From Bradyrhizobium arachidis (lineage in GTDB: Bacteria > Pseudomonadota > Alphaproteobacteria > Rhizobiales > Xanthobacteraceae), in contig NZ_CP030050.1 of assembly GCF_015291705.1 (NCBI RefSeq), positions 6,820,001-6,884,000 of the forward strand: DNA of 64,000 nucleotides, given 5' to 3'. Positions 4,081-13,533 of this stretch are shown one piece after another. Position 1 is the first letter of the stretch; each line of letters starts with the position of its first letter. Made by a program: the position numbers and the translations under genes. The notes below the pieces were generated by a model, which worked only from the letters and a program-made list of their open reading frames with translations, did not search any database and was not told the origin of the DNA.

Positions 4081-4521
4081 TTAGATCACGCCCTTGCGGA
4101 TCAGAAAGCAGCCATAGCCCCTGCTGTCGCCGACCTGCACCACGCCGAAGCCGGCAGCCGCCGCGCGATAGAAATCCGGACGCGAGAGCTTGCCCGGCGC
4201 AACAGCGCGGCCGGCAGCGCGCTCGATCTCGGCCAGCACCGCGCGCTGCACATCGGGGACGCGATCGGGATCGTCGACGGGCGCCATCACGCGCACCGGG
4301 TCTGGATCGAAATCGTCGAGCGGATAGACCGACATGATCGCGCGGATGGCGGTCTCCATGCTCATGCCCGGCAGCTGGATCAGGCGCTGCGACGTGGTGC
4401 TCTGCGCGATGCGGGTGGCCGGATGGTTGGCATCGACGAAGACGAGGTCGTCGCCATGGCCCATCGAAGCCAGCAGCCAGAGCAGGTCAGGCGTCAGGAT
4501 TGGATCGATCGATTTCAGCAT
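4081..4521 (-). CDS. RbsD/FucU family sugar mutarotase-like protein
   Basis: 146 aa from the ATG at 4521 (MLKSIDPILTPDLLWLLASM). The start LTPDLLWLLASMGHGDDLVF with GHGD and DANHP matches the RbsD/FucU family, which interconverts ring forms of ribose or fucose; the length is normal for the FucU branch. No sugar transporter or fucose catabolic gene is adjacent, so the substrate cannot be assigned. Its stop abuts the 98-bp repeat, and its promoter region is shared with the divergent caspase gene and contains two palindromes. Confidence 0.85.
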   Translation of the reverse strand: MLKSIDPILTPDLLWLLASMGHGDDLVFVDANHPATRIAQSTTSQRLIQLPGMSMETAIRAIMSVYPLDDFDPDPVRVMAPVDDPDRVPDVQRAVLAEIERAAGRAVAPGKLSRPDFYRAAAAGFGVVQVGDSRGYGCFLIRKGVI

Positions 4522-4568
4522 GGGGCGGACTGTCCTCTCAAGCGATTTTTCACCATAGCAGATTCCAG

Positions 4569-4584
4569 CGTGATTCAGATCACG
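4569..4584. promoter_or_regulatory. CRP-like palindrome
   Basis: CGTGATTCAGATCACG is a perfect 6+4+6 dyad with the CRP/FNR-family core GTGA-N6-TCAC. It lies between two divergent starts (4521 minus, 4686 plus). A binding role is inferred only from sequence. Confidence 0.45.
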
Positions 4585-4596
4585 CAGCCTATCATG

Positions 4597-4610
4597 GTGA
4601 CCGCGGTCAC
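4597..4610. promoter_or_regulatory. Second palindrome GTGACCGCGGTCAC
   Basis: A perfect 14-bp palindrome centred 27 bp from the CRP-like site, in the same divergent intergenic region. It may be an operator of an unknown regulator; nothing else is known about it. Confidence 0.35.
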
Positions 4611-4685
4611 GGACCCCGAACTCGAACGCGGCCAGTCTGCCTCGCAACCAATCTCGCATCGAGATCAGTGCCAGAGGAGCACGCC

Positions 4686-6527
4686 ATGTTCCGCCTAAAG
4701 CCTTTCCTGATGACGGCTAGCCTCGTGGGAAGCCTGTTCGGCTTTCTCGGCGGCCCTGTTTCCGCGCAAGTCGCTCCCGTGGAGCCCGCCCCCACCGCGC
4801 TGCAAGGCCCGGAGCAGCGGGTCGCGCTGGTGATCGGCAATTCGAACTACCAGAACGCGCCGCAGCTGCAAAATCCCGACAATGACGCGCAGTCGATGGC
4901 GCAGTTCCTGAACTCGGCCGGTTTCGAGGTGGTTGCCGCGACCGACCTGACCCAGAACGACATGCTTCGCGTGGTCCAGGACTTTTCCGCCAAAGTGTCC
5001 GCGCGCGGTCCGAACACCGTGGCGATGGTCTATTACGCTGGCCACGGCGTGCAGCTCGCCGGCGAGAACTACCTCGTGCCGGTCGATGCCAAGGTCTCCA
5101 GCCCCAACGAGCTCGTCAACAATTCGGTGCGCCTGGTCGACGTGATGTCGACGCTGGAGTCGATCCCGAGCCGCATGCGCATCGTCATCCTCGATGCCTG
5201 CCGCAACAATCCGTTCCCGAGCGTCAACGACGCCGGCCGCGGCCTTGCCATCGTCGACGCGCCGAACGGCTCGATCGTCGGCTATTCCACCGCGCCGGGC
5301 GCCGAAGCGCTCGACGGCACCAATGGCCACAGCCCCTATACGCAGGCCTTCCTCAACATCGCGCATGAGCCGAACGTGCCGATCGAGCAGCTGTTCAAGC
5401 GCGTGCGTCTTCAGGTGAACCAGACCACCAGCGGCGCGCAGATCCCCTGGGAGAGCTCGTCGCTGACGAGCGACTTCACCTTCTTCGGCGACACCGCCGT
5501 TGCCGCCAACCGCGCGCCGCTGAATGCGCCTGTGGTGCAGATGGCCTCCAACCTGCCCAGCCGCTCGACGCGCCAGGCCTATGACTACGTCCTGTCCGAG
5601 GGCCGGCCGGAGTACTATCAGGAGTTCATCCAGATGTACCCGCACGACCCGCTGTGCGACCACATCCGCTGGCTGCTCAACAACCTGCTGCTCACGCAGG
5701 CCTGGCACAAGGCGGTGCTGGCGAACTCGCCGATCGGCTACCAGAGCTTCTACGACAGCTACGGCAACAGCCCCTATGGCTCGTCCGCACTGAAGCTTGC
5801 AGCGCAGCCGAAGCTGATCCCCCTGATGCAAGCGACCAAGTTCCTGGCGCCGCAGAACATTGCCCCGACGTTCAAGGTCGGCAATCTCGGCCAGCCCAAA
5901 TACATGCCGCTGATGCAGCAGGGTAATGGTGGTGGCCAGATCAACGCCAACCTGCCGGTCGTGCAGAAGCCGATCGACGGCAACGTGATCGGCAAGCTCG
6001 GCAATGGCGGCCAGGTCGTCAACCTGCCGGCGGGTAACAACCAGCCGAACGGCACGCCCTCGCAGAACCCGGGCAAGATCGTCACCCTGCCTGCGCCGAC
6101 CAACACGACCAACAATAGTGGCGGCACCGGCAAGATTATCACCCTGCCCGCGACCAACAACGCGCCGAACGCCGGCAATGGCACCGGTACTGGCAAAGGC
6201 ACTGGCAACGGCAACCCGGGCAAGATCGTCAGCATGCCGGTGAACGTCGGCAAGGGCGGCACGACTGTCGACACCAAGCCGGTCGTTCAGACGCAGACCA
6301 ATCCGATCCGCGTCAACAACGGCAACACCGGCATCGTCAAGCTCAACAACAATCCGGTGAACAAGGTGCAGGTGCAGAACAACCAGCAGAACAACAACAA
6401 TCGCCCGCAGCTCAATACGACCAACCGCATGGTCAACAACGGCGGCAACAACTTCCGCCAGTCGATGAACCAGGCGCCGAGCATGAACAATGGCGGCAAC
6501 AATCGCCGCGGCGGCTTCATGCACTGA
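4686..6527 (+). CDS. Secreted caspase-like (peptidase C14) protein with Asn/Gly-rich tail
   Basis: 613 aa from the ATG at 4686, preceded by GAGGAG. A signal peptide (to about residue 29) leads into a caspase p20-like domain: RVALVIGNSNY, catalytic His120 in YYAGHG and Cys172 in DACRNNPF are all present, so the peptidase site looks intact. Residues about 290-400 form a second region containing a YDYVLSEGRPEYYQEFIQMY segment. The last 200 residues are low complexity, rich in Asn, Gly and Gln, with three spaced repeats of a GKIVTLPA-like motif (GKIVTLPA, GKIITLPA, GKIVSMPV). Bacterial metacaspase-like proteins cleave after Arg/Lys or are untested; the substrate is unknown. Confidence 0.88.
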   Translation: MFRLKPFLMTASLVGSLFGFLGGPVSAQVAPVEPAPTALQGPEQRVALVIGNSNYQNAPQLQNPDNDAQSMAQFLNSAGFEVVAATDLTQNDMLRVVQDFSAKVSARGPNTVAMVYYAGHGVQLAGENYLVPVDAKVSSPNELVNNSVRLVDVMSTLESIPSRMRIVILDACRNNPFPSVNDAGRGLAIVDAPNGSIVGYSTAPGAEALDGTNGHSPYTQAFLNIAHEPNVPIEQLFKRVRLQVNQTTSGAQIPWESSSLTSDFTFFGDTAVAANRAPLNAPVVQMASNLPSRSTRQAYDYVLSEGRPEYYQEFIQMYPHDPLCDHIRWLLNNLLLTQAWHKAVLANSPIGYQSFYDSYGNSPYGSSALKLAAQPKLIPLMQATKFLAPQNIAPTFKVGNLGQPKYMPLMQQGNGGGQINANLPVVQKPIDGNVIGKLGNGGQVVNLPAGNNQPNGTPSQNPGKIVTLPAPTNTTNNSGGTGKIITLPATNNAPNAGNGTGTGKGTGNGNPGKIVSMPVNVGKGGTTVDTKPVVQTQTNPIRVNNGNTGIVKLNNNPVNKVQVQNNQQNNNNRPQLNTTNRMVNNGGNNFRQSMNQAPSMNNGGNNRRGGFMH

Positions 6528-9934: not shown

Positions 9935-10735
9935 TCAATAGAACTTGTGGAAATGATGGATCGGCCCGTGGCCGTGGCCGACGCTGAAGCGGTCGGCGGC
10001 GGCGATCGCCGCGCTGATCCAGGCCTTGGCGCTCTGCACGGAGCGCTCGAGATCTTCGCCCCTGGCGAGCCCGGCCGCGACCGCCGACGACAGCGAGCAG
10101 CCGGTGCCATGGGTGTTGCGTGTGGCGACGCGCGGGGCGGCAAGTGATATCGTTTTTTCCGAATTTACGAGATAGTCGATGCTCTCGGCCCCCTCGCCGT
10201 GGCCGCCCTTGATCAGCACCGCGCCGCAGCCGAGCGCCAGCAGGCGGCGGCCCTGACGCTCGATCTCCGCCTCGCTGGCCGCAACGGGCTCGTCGAGCAG
10301 CGCGGCGGCCTCCGGCAGATTGGGCGTGATCACGGAGGCGAGCGGCATCAGTCGCGTGCGCAGCGCGTCCACGGCTTCGGACGCCAGCAGGCGATCGCCG
10401 GAGGTCGCGACCATCACGGGATCGAGCACGATATGGCGGGGCTTCCAGCGCGTCAGCGCGGCCGCGATCGCATCGATGCTGGCGGCCTGGGCCACCATGC
10501 CGATCTTCACCGCGCCGACCTCGAGATCGGAGAACACCGCGTCGATCTGCGCGGTGACGAAATCGGCCGGCACCGCGTGGATGCCGGTGACGCCGCGCGT
10601 GTTCTGCGCCGTCAGCGCCGTGATCGCGGAGGCGCCGTAGACGCCGAACGCGGCAAAGGTCTTCAGGTCCGCCTGGATGCCGGCGCCGCCGCTCGAATCC
10701 GAGCCGGCGATGGTGAGTGCGACCGGCGTCGTCAT
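9935..10735 (-). CDS. thiD: Hydroxymethylpyrimidine / phosphomethylpyrimidine kinase
   Basis: 266 aa from the ATG at 10735; an ATG at 10747 is an alternative. The sequence [17 protein letters not shown] is the hallmark of ThiD, and the anion-hole/catalytic region [17 protein letters not shown] is present. It phosphorylates HMP and HMP-P in thiamin pyrophosphate synthesis, in the cytoplasm. No other thi genes or recognisable TPP riboswitch were seen beside it. Length is normal. Confidence 0.92.
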
Positions 10736-11060
10736 CGCGGCATGCATTTGCTTGATAGGAACTGCGCCATGGCCTGTCCTAGCGCGGCCGTGGAACGCCA
10801 GCAAGCGTTGCGGGCCGCGGCCAGCCGTGATTCGCTGTGCTGACGGCCCCGCGAATCAGGTGGAGCCGATCCGGCGCGGCACCGGCGGCCCGCAATCGTG
10901 CGGGCTTGCAAAATGCAACCGCGCCGTCCCCTTGGTACGGTCTCGCGTTCGGCGTGTGTGTCCATGCGTGAGACGTTGGGCGGCGGGACCCGTCCAACGG
11001 CAGCAGCGATGCGGGCCGCCCCGGCCCGAGAAGCCTCGAATGCCAGCTTGGGGTGGAACC
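10736..11060. other. Non-coding gap between thiD and the hybrid kinase
   Basis: 325 bp between divergent starts. It presumably holds both promoters, but no palindrome, known operator, riboswitch or credible small gene was recognised. Confidence 0.5.
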
Positions 11061-13040
11061 ATGTGGGCCTTTCTCGAACGCATCCTCGACTCCTCGATGT
11101 TCTCGCCGCACGGCATCTGCCTGCTGTGGGAACCCGAACTGATCTGGCTCCATGTCGTCTCCGACGCGATCATCGCCGCCGCCTATTTCTCGATTCCCTT
11201 CGCCCTCGCCATTTTCGTCACCAAACGGCGCGACCTCAAATTCGGTTGGGTCTATTGGGCGTTCGCGATCTTCATCATGGCCTGCGGCCTGACCCATGTG
11301 CTGGCGATCTACACGCTCTGGGTCCCGATCTACGGCATTGAGGGCCTCGTCAAGGCGGTCACGGCCGCGGCCTCCATCTTCACTGCCGGCGCGCTCTGGC
11401 CGCTGCTGCCGAAGATCCTGACGGTCCCCTCTCCGTTCGAACTGCGGCAGGTCCAGGCCGCGCTCGAGGAGGAGGAGATCAAGCGCCGGGACGCGACGCT
11501 CCTGCTCAAGCAGGTCGGCGAAGCCCAGCGCGCGATGCGCGAGAGCGTGGTGCGCCTCACCGCGATCGTCGAGACCGCGGTCGACGGCGTCATCCTGTTC
11601 GACGCGCAGGACCGCATCCTGCTGTTCAATCCGGCCTGCGAGCGCCTGTTCGGCTATCAGGCCGGCGAGGTGATGAACCGGAACGTCGGCATGTTGATTT
11701 CAGGCGCGGACGCCGCGCCCGACAGCCGCGCGAGGCATTTCGCGACCGGCGGCGAGGCCGTCGGCCTGCGCAGGAACGGATCGACCTTTCCGATGGACCT
11801 CTCGGTCGGCCAGGCCCGGCAGGACGGCGAGTTGATCTTCGTCGGCATCGTCCACGACCTCACCGCGCGCAAGCTGACCGAGCAGCAACTCCAGCAGGCG
11901 CAGAAGATGGAGACGGTCGGCCAGCTCTCCGGCGGCATCGCGCACGACTTCAACAACCTGCTCACCGTCATGATCGGCAACGCCGAGCATTTGAGCGAGC
12001 AGCTCAAGGCAAGGCCTGACCTGCGACGGTTTGCCGACGACATTTGCCTGTCGGGCGAACGGGGCGCCGAGCTGACGCAGCGACTGCTCGCGTTCAGCCG
12101 CCGCCAGCTGCTCCAGCCGCAGACGATCGATTGCCGCAACCTGCTCGAGTCCATGTTCAAGCTGCTCAAACGCACCTTGCGCGAGGACATCGAGATCAGG
12201 ACCGCTTCCGGCCCCGGCACGATCCTGGCTTTTGCCGACCGCGCCCAGCTCGAATCCGCCGTGCTGAACCTTGCGCTCAACGCGCAGGATGCCATGCCGT
12301 CAGGAGGACACCTGACGCTGAGCACGGAGCTGGCTGCGATCGACGAGGACTATCGCGCCCTTCACCCCGAAGTCGCATCCGGCAGCTACGCCATGATCGC
12401 GGTCACCGACGACGGTGAAGGCATGACGCCTGGTGTCATCGAACGCGCCTTCGAGCCGTTCTTCACCACCAAGGAGGTCGGCAAGGGGTCTGGCCTCGGC
12501 CTCAGCATGGTCTATGGCTTCGCCAAGCAATCCGACGGCCATGTCGCGATCTACAGCGAGCAACGCCTGGGCACGACGGTCCGGATCTATTTGCCGCGCG
12601 CCGACGCGGGACCATCTGCGGGCGACCTTGCCGACGGCGAGGAGGCGGCGCCGCGAGGCTACGAAACCATCCTGATCGCGGAGGACGATCCGTTCGTCCG
12701 TTCCTCCGCCATTCGCAGGGTGGAGGCACTCGGCTACAGCGTCGTTGCCGCGGTCAACGGCAAGGAGGCGTTGCAGCGGCTGCGCGCCGAACCCGGTATC
12801 GACATGCTGTTCACCGACATCGTGATGCCCGGCGGCATGAGCGGCTGGGAGCTTGCCGAGCAGGCGCGGCGGATTCGCCCGGGCCTGCCGGTCCTGTTCA
12901 CCTCCGGCTACGCGCTGGAGACCCTGGTCGAGCAGGGCCGCGCGCATGCCCAGGCGATCCTGCTGACCAAGCCCTACCGCAAGGCCGAGCTCGCACAGCG
13001 GCTGAGGGAAGCGTTTGCCGCGGCCGCCGTGATCTCGTAG
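11061..13040 (+). CDS. Hybrid sensor histidine kinase with ethylene-receptor-like membrane domain
   Basis: 659 aa from the ATG at 11061 (GGGGTGG upstream). Residues 28-130 form three membrane helices closely resembling the ethylene-binding domain of plant ETR1: [13 protein letters not shown] and IMACGLTH correspond to the plant SDFFIAIAYFSIP and IVLCGATH. The residues known to matter in ETR1 (Asp25, Tyr32, Ile62, Cys65, His69) are all matched, at D35, Y42, I72, C75 and H79, a constant offset of 10. A short coiled coil, a PAS domain (about 170-285), HisKA with H295 in [10 protein letters not shown], HATPase_c and a C-terminal receiver with phospho-acceptor D586 follow. Ligand binding is inferred. 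Confidence 0.9.
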
Positions 13041-13190: not shown

Positions 13191-13287
13191 GGCCGCGGGC
13201 GGCAAATCCCCGCGGCCAGCAAGTTCGCTTGCCAATCCCGACCGGTTTTGGCCTATTAGCGGCAGATATGCCTTCGGAGTGACTGCA

Positions 13288-13533
13288 ATGGTTCCTTTCT
13301 TCGTCCAGATCAAATGCAAGCTCGGCCAGTCCTACACGGTGGCCAACGCGCTTGCCGAAGCCGAGATCGCCTCCGAGATCTACTCCACCGCAGGCCATTA
13401 CGATTTGCTGGTGAAGTTCTACGTCGACAAGGACACCGACATCGGCCACTTCATCAATGAGAAGGTGCAGGTGCTGCCGGGCATCCAGGACACCCTCACC
13501 ATCATCACCTTCAAGGCCTTCGGCACGAGCTAG
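13288..13533 (+). CDS. Stand-alone Lrp/AsnC ligand-binding domain protein
   Basis: 81 aa from the ATG at 13288. The whole protein corresponds to the RAM/AsnC_trans_reg domain (KLGQSYTVANALAEAEIASE, STAGHYDLLVKFYV, PGIQDTLTIITFKAF), with no helix-turn-helix. Such stand-alone domains form oligomers that bind amino acids and may modulate full-length Lrp-type regulators. Its partner is unknown. Confidence 0.85.
   Translation: MVPFFVQIKCKLGQSYTVANALAEAEIASEIYSTAGHYDLLVKFYVDKDTDIGHFINEKVQVLPGIQDTLTIITFKAFGTS

What the first reader, a model, noticed from the sequence alone, without database searches (positions are those of the whole stretch)
11061..13040. Hybrid histidine kinase with a fully conserved ethylene-binding-like sensor
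Residues 28-130 align with the ethylene receptor domain of plant ETR1 without needing gaps in the first two helices. Asp35, Tyr42, Ile72, Cys75 and His79 match the ETR1 residues D25, Y32, I62, C65 and H69. Cys65 and His69 hold the copper ion in ETR1. The kinase continues with PAS, HisKA, HATPase and receiver domains, all with intact phospho-residues (H295, D586). A soil or root-associated bacterium could use this to sense plant ethylene. The alignment is from memory of ETR1.
Basis: partly seen in the sequence, partly recalled or inferred. Interest (0 to 1): 0.75.

Follow-up and report, generated by a model that had tools for sequence, protein, structure and literature searches.

The report
Bradyrhizobium ethylene receptor, ex-haem sensor
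A root-nodule bacterium carries a membrane sensor that looks like a working receptor for the plant hormone ethylene, and its relatives suggest it was built on an oxygen-type haem sensor whose haem pocket this copy has since lost.

Summary
Observation confirmed: window 11061-13040 (+) encodes a 659-aa hybrid kinase whose residues 26-121 match Pfam ETR1_N without gaps (E 9e-38). All seven ETR1 ethylene-binding residues are present (D35, Y42, I45, P46, I72, C75, H79), plus lysine K98. The domain aligns gap-free (50% identity) with A. brasilense AzoEtr1 in the same numbering; AzoEtr1[1-130] binds ethylene in the published assay. The genome is Bradyrhizobium-like, with NodA and ACC deaminase.

Beyond the finding: the PAS domain is FixL-type. 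One group of homologues (A1, 119 of 119 listed) keeps the FixL haem His and Arg in exact spacing; the window's group (A2, 121 of 121) has that helix shortened. Nine of nine outgroup kinases keep both, so the loss is derived. Selection follows: A2 dN/dS is 0.088 in the ethylene domain, 0.308 in the PAS; A1, 0.084 and 0.074. A degenerate class (H79 to Arg) has a relaxed sensor, 0.314.

Verdict: a new member of the bacterial ethylene-receptor kind, in a new variant (ethylene domain on a FixL-type kinase). A1 are candidate dual ethylene/haem-gas sensors. Presence does not track NodA (p = 1). Binding, copper, haem and partner are untested.

The parts
11061..13040 (+). CDS of the hybrid histidine kinase (659 aa; class A2 ethylene-receptor homologue)
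11136..11423 (+). ethylene-binding domain ETR1_N, residues 26-121; three predicted helices 25-55, 62-84, 91-120
   Evidence: profile; model
11163..11165 (+). codon of Asp35 (ETR1 D25)
11283..11297 (+). codons Cys75 to His79, predicted Cu(I) ligands (ETR1 C65, H69)
11352..11354 (+). codon of Lys98 (ETR1 K91), output lysine
   Evidence: 240 of 240 keep K
11433..11573 (+). long signal helix, residues 125-171
   Evidence: model, moderate confidence
11556..11858 (+). PAS domain of FixL type, residues 166-266, haem pocket eroded
11709..11747 (+). residues 217-229: region where relatives carry the FixL-type haem helix (H200..R220 of BjFixL); shortened here, pLDDT under 50
11919..12107 (+). HisKA, residues 287-349; phospho-acceptor His295 at 11943-11945
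12237..12602 (+). HATPase_c, residues 393-514
12669..13004 (+). receiver domain, residues 537-648; phospho-acceptor Asp586 at 12816-12818
9935..10744 (-). ThiD (phosphomethylpyrimidine kinase), conserved left neighbour of class A2
13258..13533 (+). stand-alone Lrp/AsnC ligand-binding domain protein, conserved right neighbour of class A2

Best explanation
The protein is a bacterial ethylene receptor. Three membrane helices form a copper-dependent ethylene site (Cu(I) held by Cys75 and His79, positioned by Asp35, with Lys98 coupling to output). Occupancy is passed through a long helix and a PAS domain, now only a relay, to a CckA/FixL-like HisKA-HATPase core that phosphorylates His295 and then Asp586 of its own receiver; ethylene most likely lowers kinase activity, as reported for AtETR1 and indirectly for SynEtr1. 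The receptor arose by putting an ethylene domain on a FixL-type haem-PAS hybrid kinase. Close relatives (A1) still keep both sensors; the window's lineage (A2) sits at a locus of its own and has lost the haem ligand helix. Shown here: sequence features, phylogeny, selection, synteny. Inferred: copper and ethylene binding, sign of the response, phosphorelay, order of the domain fusion. Unknown: the downstream regulator.
For: ETR1_N E 9.4e-38 over equal lengths. DYIPICH+K intact in 37 of 51 aligned sequences (13 of the rest are the degenerate class C, one too distant) and DYIPICH in 235 of 240 database homologues. 50% gap-free identity to AzoEtr1 in identical numbering; AzoEtr1[1-130] binds 14C-ethylene in yeast, and disrupted cells keep little or no saturable binding (PMC11819568, section 6). 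A2 dN/dS, 17 sequences, 136 pairs: EBD 0.088, linker 0.258, PAS 0.308, HK 0.131, REC 0.165; where the binding residues are lost (class C, 12 of its 13 sequences) the domain relaxes to 0.314 with HK at 0.100. FixL-type PAS: the window PAS best PDB hits are FixL, E 2.4e-17, the A1 PAS 1.4e-30 without a gap. His and Arg kept in 119 of 240 homologues, the segment shortened in 121; 9 of 9 outgroup kinases keep both and A2 is a clade at 100/99. A1 PAS dN/dS 0.074.
Against: No binding, copper or kinase data for this protein or genus. dN/dS values are pairwise medians over non-independent pairs; A1 rests on 4 loci (6 pairs, 3 for REC). No co-occurrence with NodA (p = 1). ACC deaminase is nearly universal in the genus (52 of 60 over the cut-off) and so tells nothing. 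None of the ten neighbouring proteins scanned is a response regulator. Hydropathy (19-residue window, 1.6 or more) marks helices 1 and 2 but not helix 3. One kinase without an ethylene domain (P0214) falls inside the class-A kinase group, so the ethylene domain was swapped out there or was gained after that split: the order of the fusion is not settled. The model is of moderate confidence (mean pLDDT 72.6, pTM 0.38) and no solved ethylene-binding domain was found by sequence.
Confidence: 0.77

Rival explanations
1. The three-helix domain holds copper but its natural signal is something else (copper itself, another small olefin or gas, or membrane or redox state); ethylene binding is incidental.
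For: Presence does not follow NodA; 9 of 19 class-A genomes lack it. Carlew et al. 2025 discuss possible ethylene-independent roles.
Against: The seven residues that were defined by ethylene binding in ETR1 are all kept, in 235 of 240 homologues, not only the Cys/His pair; a homologue 50% identical in this domain binds ethylene and its host responds at 1 ppb (PMC11819568).
Confidence: 0.13
2. It is mainly a cytoplasmic haem/oxygen sensor of FixL type and the membrane domain is an anchor.
For: PAS is FixL-like (E 2.4e-17), kinase core is CckA/FixL-like.
Against: The haem His and the Arg are gone, with a 9-10 residue deletion; the PAS is the least constrained region (dN/dS 0.308) and the membrane domain the most (0.088).
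Confidence: 0.03
3. The receptor is decaying and no longer signals.
For: Broken or shortened copies exist in relatives: L194, L192, L063.
Against: Window copy has an open frame, intact H295, D586 and ATP-binding domain; EBD, HK and REC all under purifying selection.
Confidence: 0.04

Closest known systems
AzoEtr1 of Azospirillum brasilense (Carlew et al. 2025, PMC11819568)
   Same: Same N-terminal register, 50% gap-free identity over residues 5-135, all seven binding residues and K98 at the same numbers; EBD-PAS-kinase order.
   Different: AzoEtr1 is 525 aa, not hybrid, with a receiver gene just downstream; the window protein carries its own receiver, has a FixL-type PAS and no regulator beside it.
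Plant ETR1 / cyanobacterial SynEtr1 (Slr1212)
   Same: Copper/ethylene domain of three helices with seven required residues (PMC11819568).
   Different: Plant receptors signal mostly without kinase activity and SynEtr1 also senses light. Neither sequence was fetched here.
FixL of Bradyrhizobium/Sinorhizobium (haem O2 sensor)
   Same: PAS and kinase core homologous; A1 relatives keep the BjFixL H200 and R220 equivalents with the same 20-residue spacing.
   Different: FixL has tandem PAS domains and no ethylene domain; the window PAS lost both residues.
PAS-PAS-HK-REC hybrid kinases (L104, L106-L114) and the multi-PAS kinase P0214
   Same: Nearest kinase cores without an ethylene domain; P0214 even falls inside the class-A kinase group.
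   Different: Haem-type PAS domains and no membrane ethylene domain.

Membership tests
Bacterial ethylene receptor (ETR1_N / ethylene-binding domain) | Profile match to the ethylene-binding domain over the curated cut-off | tested here: met
   128.8 bits against cut-off 27, model 1-96 of 97
Bacterial ethylene receptor (ETR1_N / ethylene-binding domain) | Seven residues required for ethylene binding in ETR1 (D25 Y32 I35 P36 I62 C65 H69) | tested here: met
   D35 Y42 I45 P46 I72 C75 H79; mapped through AzoEtr1, ETR1 not fetched
Bacterial ethylene receptor (ETR1_N / ethylene-binding domain) | Three transmembrane helices before the signalling part | tested here: inconclusive
   Helices 25-55, 62-84, 91-120 in the model; hydropathy of 1.6 or more marks the first two only; topology not measured
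Bacterial ethylene receptor (ETR1_N / ethylene-binding domain) | Saturable, copper-dependent ethylene binding | not testable with these tools
   needs radioligand assay
Bacterial ethylene receptor (ETR1_N / ethylene-binding domain) | Selection maintains the sensor domain | tested here: met
   median dN/dS 0.088, lowest of five regions
Hybrid histidine kinase | HisKA His, HATPase_c, receiver Asp present | tested here: met
   H295, 393-514, D586
FixL-type haem PAS sensor (for the window protein) | Proximal haem His (BjFixL H200) and Arg220 | tested here: not met
   segment shortened, both residues gone
FixL-type haem PAS sensor (for A1 relatives such as P0002) | Proximal haem His and Arg220 in register | tested here: met
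   119 of 119 listed A1 homologues; E 1.4e-30 to RmFixL haem domain
FixL-type haem PAS sensor (for A1 relatives such as P0002) | Binds haem and O2 | not testable with these tools
   needs spectra of purified protein
Symbiosis-specific gene | Associated with nodulation genes | tested here: not met
   10 of 19 class-A vs 23 of 41 other genomes carry NodA, p = 1

The most novel reading that the evidence does not exclude
Bradyrhizobium built an ethylene receptor on the chassis of a FixL-type haem oxygen sensor. Some lineages (A1: P0002, L191-L193 and 118 more database homologues, most from jgi or ena sources) keep both, a single kinase that reads ethylene at the membrane and O2, NO or CO through haem in the cytosol. 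The lineage that includes the window gave up the haem input, stands at the ThiD-Lrp locus, and now reads ethylene alone.
Probability: 0.5. Interest if true: 0.75.

Novelty: new variant of a known kind. Interest (0 to 1): 0.55.

Why it matters
Ethylene is a negative regulator of nodulation and ACC deaminase of bacteria lowers it (abstract starts in the listings); that the symbiont may itself perceive ethylene with a plant-type receptor was not seen in the papers listed here. 85 of 265 genus genomes carry a full-length match to the A1 EBD-PAS query (my count of its list), and none of the names shown mentions ethylene. A set of natural variants (A1 with both sensors, A2 with one, class C with a broken ethylene site) makes the ethylene and haem inputs separable in one chassis and directly testable.

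Tried and rejected
Plant-symbiosis link by co-occurrence: NodA gave no association; ACC deaminase was too common to test. I counted as NodA the 33 genomes with a strong match; one search lists 37 at E 0.001, and the four weak ones (G014, G031, G044, G047) include the A1 genome G031. Operon with the Lrp-LBD gene: rejected as a functional link, since the gap varies (about 2.5 kb in L067/L068) and in L057 the kinase lies on the other side of it. FixJ-like regulator as partner: 3 of 4 A1 loci (L051, L191, L192) have it nearby (in L191 with another kinase between), L193 does not; the window genome keeps an 82% identical match at 0.49 Mb of the contig, far from the receptor at 6.83 Mb, beside a 1210-aa kinase that could equally be its partner. 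Left as a lead. 'A and B classes exclude each other': 0 overlaps in 60 genomes, but G150 has both kinds of match in the larger set, so dropped. Solved-structure overlay of the ethylene domain: no sequence match up to E 10; the 50 rows of the fold search that were shown are kinases, phytochromes and PAS/LOV proteins. L057 as a transitional form between A1 and A2: with A2 at SH-aLRT 95 when the PAS is in, only 79/85 without it, and with A1 in the EBD tree, so not claimed as shown. The HKREC row was translated out of frame by my error (warning printed); its identities are not used. L080 (weak, DSAMVLRE) was left out of class counts; one place (G041, L028) was counted by its hit only and not read; L079 (partial) was left out of the class C dN/dS; P0214 (no ethylene domain) was left out of the 240. 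The short or long label was badly set and replaced by the alignment.

Full report
WHAT IS THERE. The frame 11061-13040 (+) encodes 659 residues. Pfam finds ETR1_N (26-121, E 9.4e-38), PAS (166-266), HisKA (287-349), HATPase_c (393-514) and a receiver (537-648). It is the sole ETR1_N match in a 9.87-Mb single-contig genome. The genus is inferred: the best 33 contigs are named Bradyrhizobium or Bradyrhizobiaceae, and the organism names shown are Bradyrhizobium but for one labelled Frankia sp. RB7. The genome has NodA (E 5e-96) and full-length ACC deaminase. The opposite strand has overlapping ORFs of the usual high-GC kind, which I did not search further.

THE ETHYLENE SITE. Carlew et al. 2025 (PMC11819568; outline, passages, section 6 and the first of two parts of section 12 seen) report that AzoEtr1 of A. 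brasilense has the seven residues required in ETR1 and that AzoEtr1[1-130] binds 14C-ethylene in yeast. AzoEtr1, recovered from the Sp7 plasmid record as a 525-residue frame (the paper also says 525 aa), aligns with the window protein without a gap over residues 5-135 at 50% identity. All seven residues and K98 are shared at the same numbers. A 2026 review (PMC13012798, one passage seen) calls the aspartate critical for affinity and describes its salt bridge to the lysine.

CLASSES IN THE GENUS. Among 100 genomes (the window's included) 46 have a match, at 52 places. Besides the window I read 50 of the other 51 places (G041 was not read). 37 of 51 sequences, window included, carry DYIPICH+K. 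13 carry a degenerate set (D, F, T, A, x, C, R with K; the C is lost in L050). One (L080) is too distant. I call the form with a FixL-type PAS and a receiver A (19 of 60 genus genomes), the PAS-less hybrid B, and the degenerate form C. Two loci (L033, L035) are a fourth build without a receiver (by eye); they were counted with B, giving 16. Among 265 genus genomes, 147 match the A1 EBD+PAS query at E 1e-60, of which 85 match over its full length (counted from its list; four of these are A1). In 198 genomes drawn across the family, 40 have an ETR1_N match.

THE PAS DOMAIN WAS A HAEM SENSOR. The window PAS hits FixL first among solved structures (E 2.4e-17), with a gap over the haem helix. The PAS of the relative P0002 (Bradyrhizobium sp. 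dw_411) matches FixL haem domains at E 1.4e-30 without a gap, including the His and Arg. That these two residues are the proximal ligand H200 and R220 of BjFixL is recalled; the review seen describes FixL as a haem PAS O2 sensor (PMC8534201, passages). Aligned to BjFixL, 119 of 240 homologues have both residues in exact spacing. In the other 121 the 21-residue segment is cut to 8-13 residues and the Arg is gone; one has a His by chance in that column. The 119 are exactly the hits listed around P0002 and the 121 those around the window protein, so the proportion is set by the two searches; what counts is that each list is uniform. Nine of nine outgroup kinases and P0214 keep both residues; L057 keeps the Arg and has Asp for the His. 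Two other PAS kinases outside the tree (L116, L120) lack the His in the PAS printed.

TREES. On the kinase core (51 rows), with the PAS or without it, A2 is a clade (99; 100/99). A1 is not one side of a branch in the best trees, and is so in only 1% of the bootstrap trees, though no starred branch forces this. Either way the outgroup has the motif, so its loss in A2 is the simplest reading. P0214, a multi-PAS kinase without an ethylene domain, falls inside class A in both trees; its sensor was exchanged, or class A gained its ethylene domain after that split. In the tree of the ethylene domain (40 rows) class A is one group (97/95), and class C lies with A and B (93/82) on a long stem (1.11).

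SELECTION AGREES. Pairwise Nei-Gojobori medians: A2 (17 sequences, 136 pairs) EBD 0.088, linker 0.258, PAS 0.308, HK 0.131, REC 0.165; B (9 sequences) EBD 0.113, HK 0.131, REC 0.143; C (12 sequences) EBD-like 0.314, HK 0.100, REC 0.124. A1 (4 loci, 6 pairs; 3 pairs for REC) EBD 0.084, linker 0.146, PAS 0.074, HK 0.128, REC 0.123. Each sensor is tightly held where its ligand residues are present and relaxed about three- to fourfold where they are gone. Pairs are not independent and no formal test was run.

WHERE IT SITS. In 38 of 38 A2 loci read, ThiD lies on one side and the stand-alone Lrp-type domain on the other (at least three genomes occur twice among them; L057/L096, the Asp form, is not counted and has the kinase beyond the Lrp domain). 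A1 sits elsewhere. In three of four loci it lies near a FixJ-like regulator and IlvD, and in L191 near CheY- and CheR-like genes and a 1237-aa kinase too (the che names are by eye). The window genome keeps matches to that cluster around 0.49 Mb, with the regulator at 82% identity, but its only receptor is at 6.83 Mb. The output path of A2 is open.

STRUCTURE. The AlphaFold2 model (38-sequence alignment, mean pLDDT 72.6, pTM 0.38) gives three helices, a long linker helix, a PAS whose residues 217-229 are below pLDDT 50, kinase and receiver. Hydropathy marks helices 1 and 2 as membrane-like and not helix 3. The fold search returns LOV/PAS histidine kinases and CckA among its best rows.

WHAT IS KNOWN AND WHAT IS NEW. 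Bacterial ethylene receptors are known, and many proteobacteria were predicted to have them (PMC11819568; PMC7700396, passages). The survey by Carlew, Allen and Binder is not held, so Bradyrhizobium may be listed there. Searches for 'ethylene receptor' with Bradyrhizobium, FixL, haem PAS and rhizobia (listings only) and for FixL with hybrid kinases (listing) showed no title or abstract start on an ethylene receptor of Bradyrhizobium or one combined with a haem PAS. I therefore file the window gene as a new member of a known kind, and the ethylene domain on a FixL chassis, with A1 as a candidate dual gas sensor, as a new variant.

LIMITS. Nothing here measures binding, copper, haem, kinase sign or phenotype. 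The link to plants is circumstantial: a NodA-bearing host genome, but no association across the genus sample.

Noticed in passing
L039-L050, L079 (13 loci): Class C: hybrid kinases descended from Bradyrhizobium ethylene receptors (stem length 1.11 in the EBD tree) that lost Y, I, P, I and H of the binding set (H79 to Arg in 13 of 13) and show relaxed selection in the sensor only; a repurposed or decoy receptor, together with class B in 6 of 60 genomes.
   Followed up: partly
L051:6879-8891, L191, L193: A1 receptors with both an intact ethylene site and an intact FixL-type haem motif.
   Followed up: partly
P0214 (904 aa): A multi-PAS kinase without an ethylene domain whose kinase core falls inside the class-A group: a sensor exchange.
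   Followed up: partly
L194 (G158), L192 (G124), L063 (G036): Interrupted or shortened receptor genes: the ethylene domain frame ends early and the kinase lies apart from it; the frame ends inside the ATPase domain; the kinase core is largely missing. Real loss or assembly error not decided.
   Followed up: no
L096 / L057 (B. lablabi SZCCT0009, G019): A-class receptor near the A2 locus that keeps the PAS helix and the Arg but has Asp for the haem His: possible transitional form.
   Followed up: partly
G000:C1:488458-492879 (L210): FixJ-like regulator beside a 1210-aa multi-PAS hybrid kinase and chemotaxis-like genes (by eye); the matching cluster holds the receptor in the A1 genome of L191.
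   Followed up: partly
window 4500-6527: Caspase-like (peptidase C14, by eye) protein with a long Asn/Gly-rich tail, upstream of the region studied.
   Followed up: no
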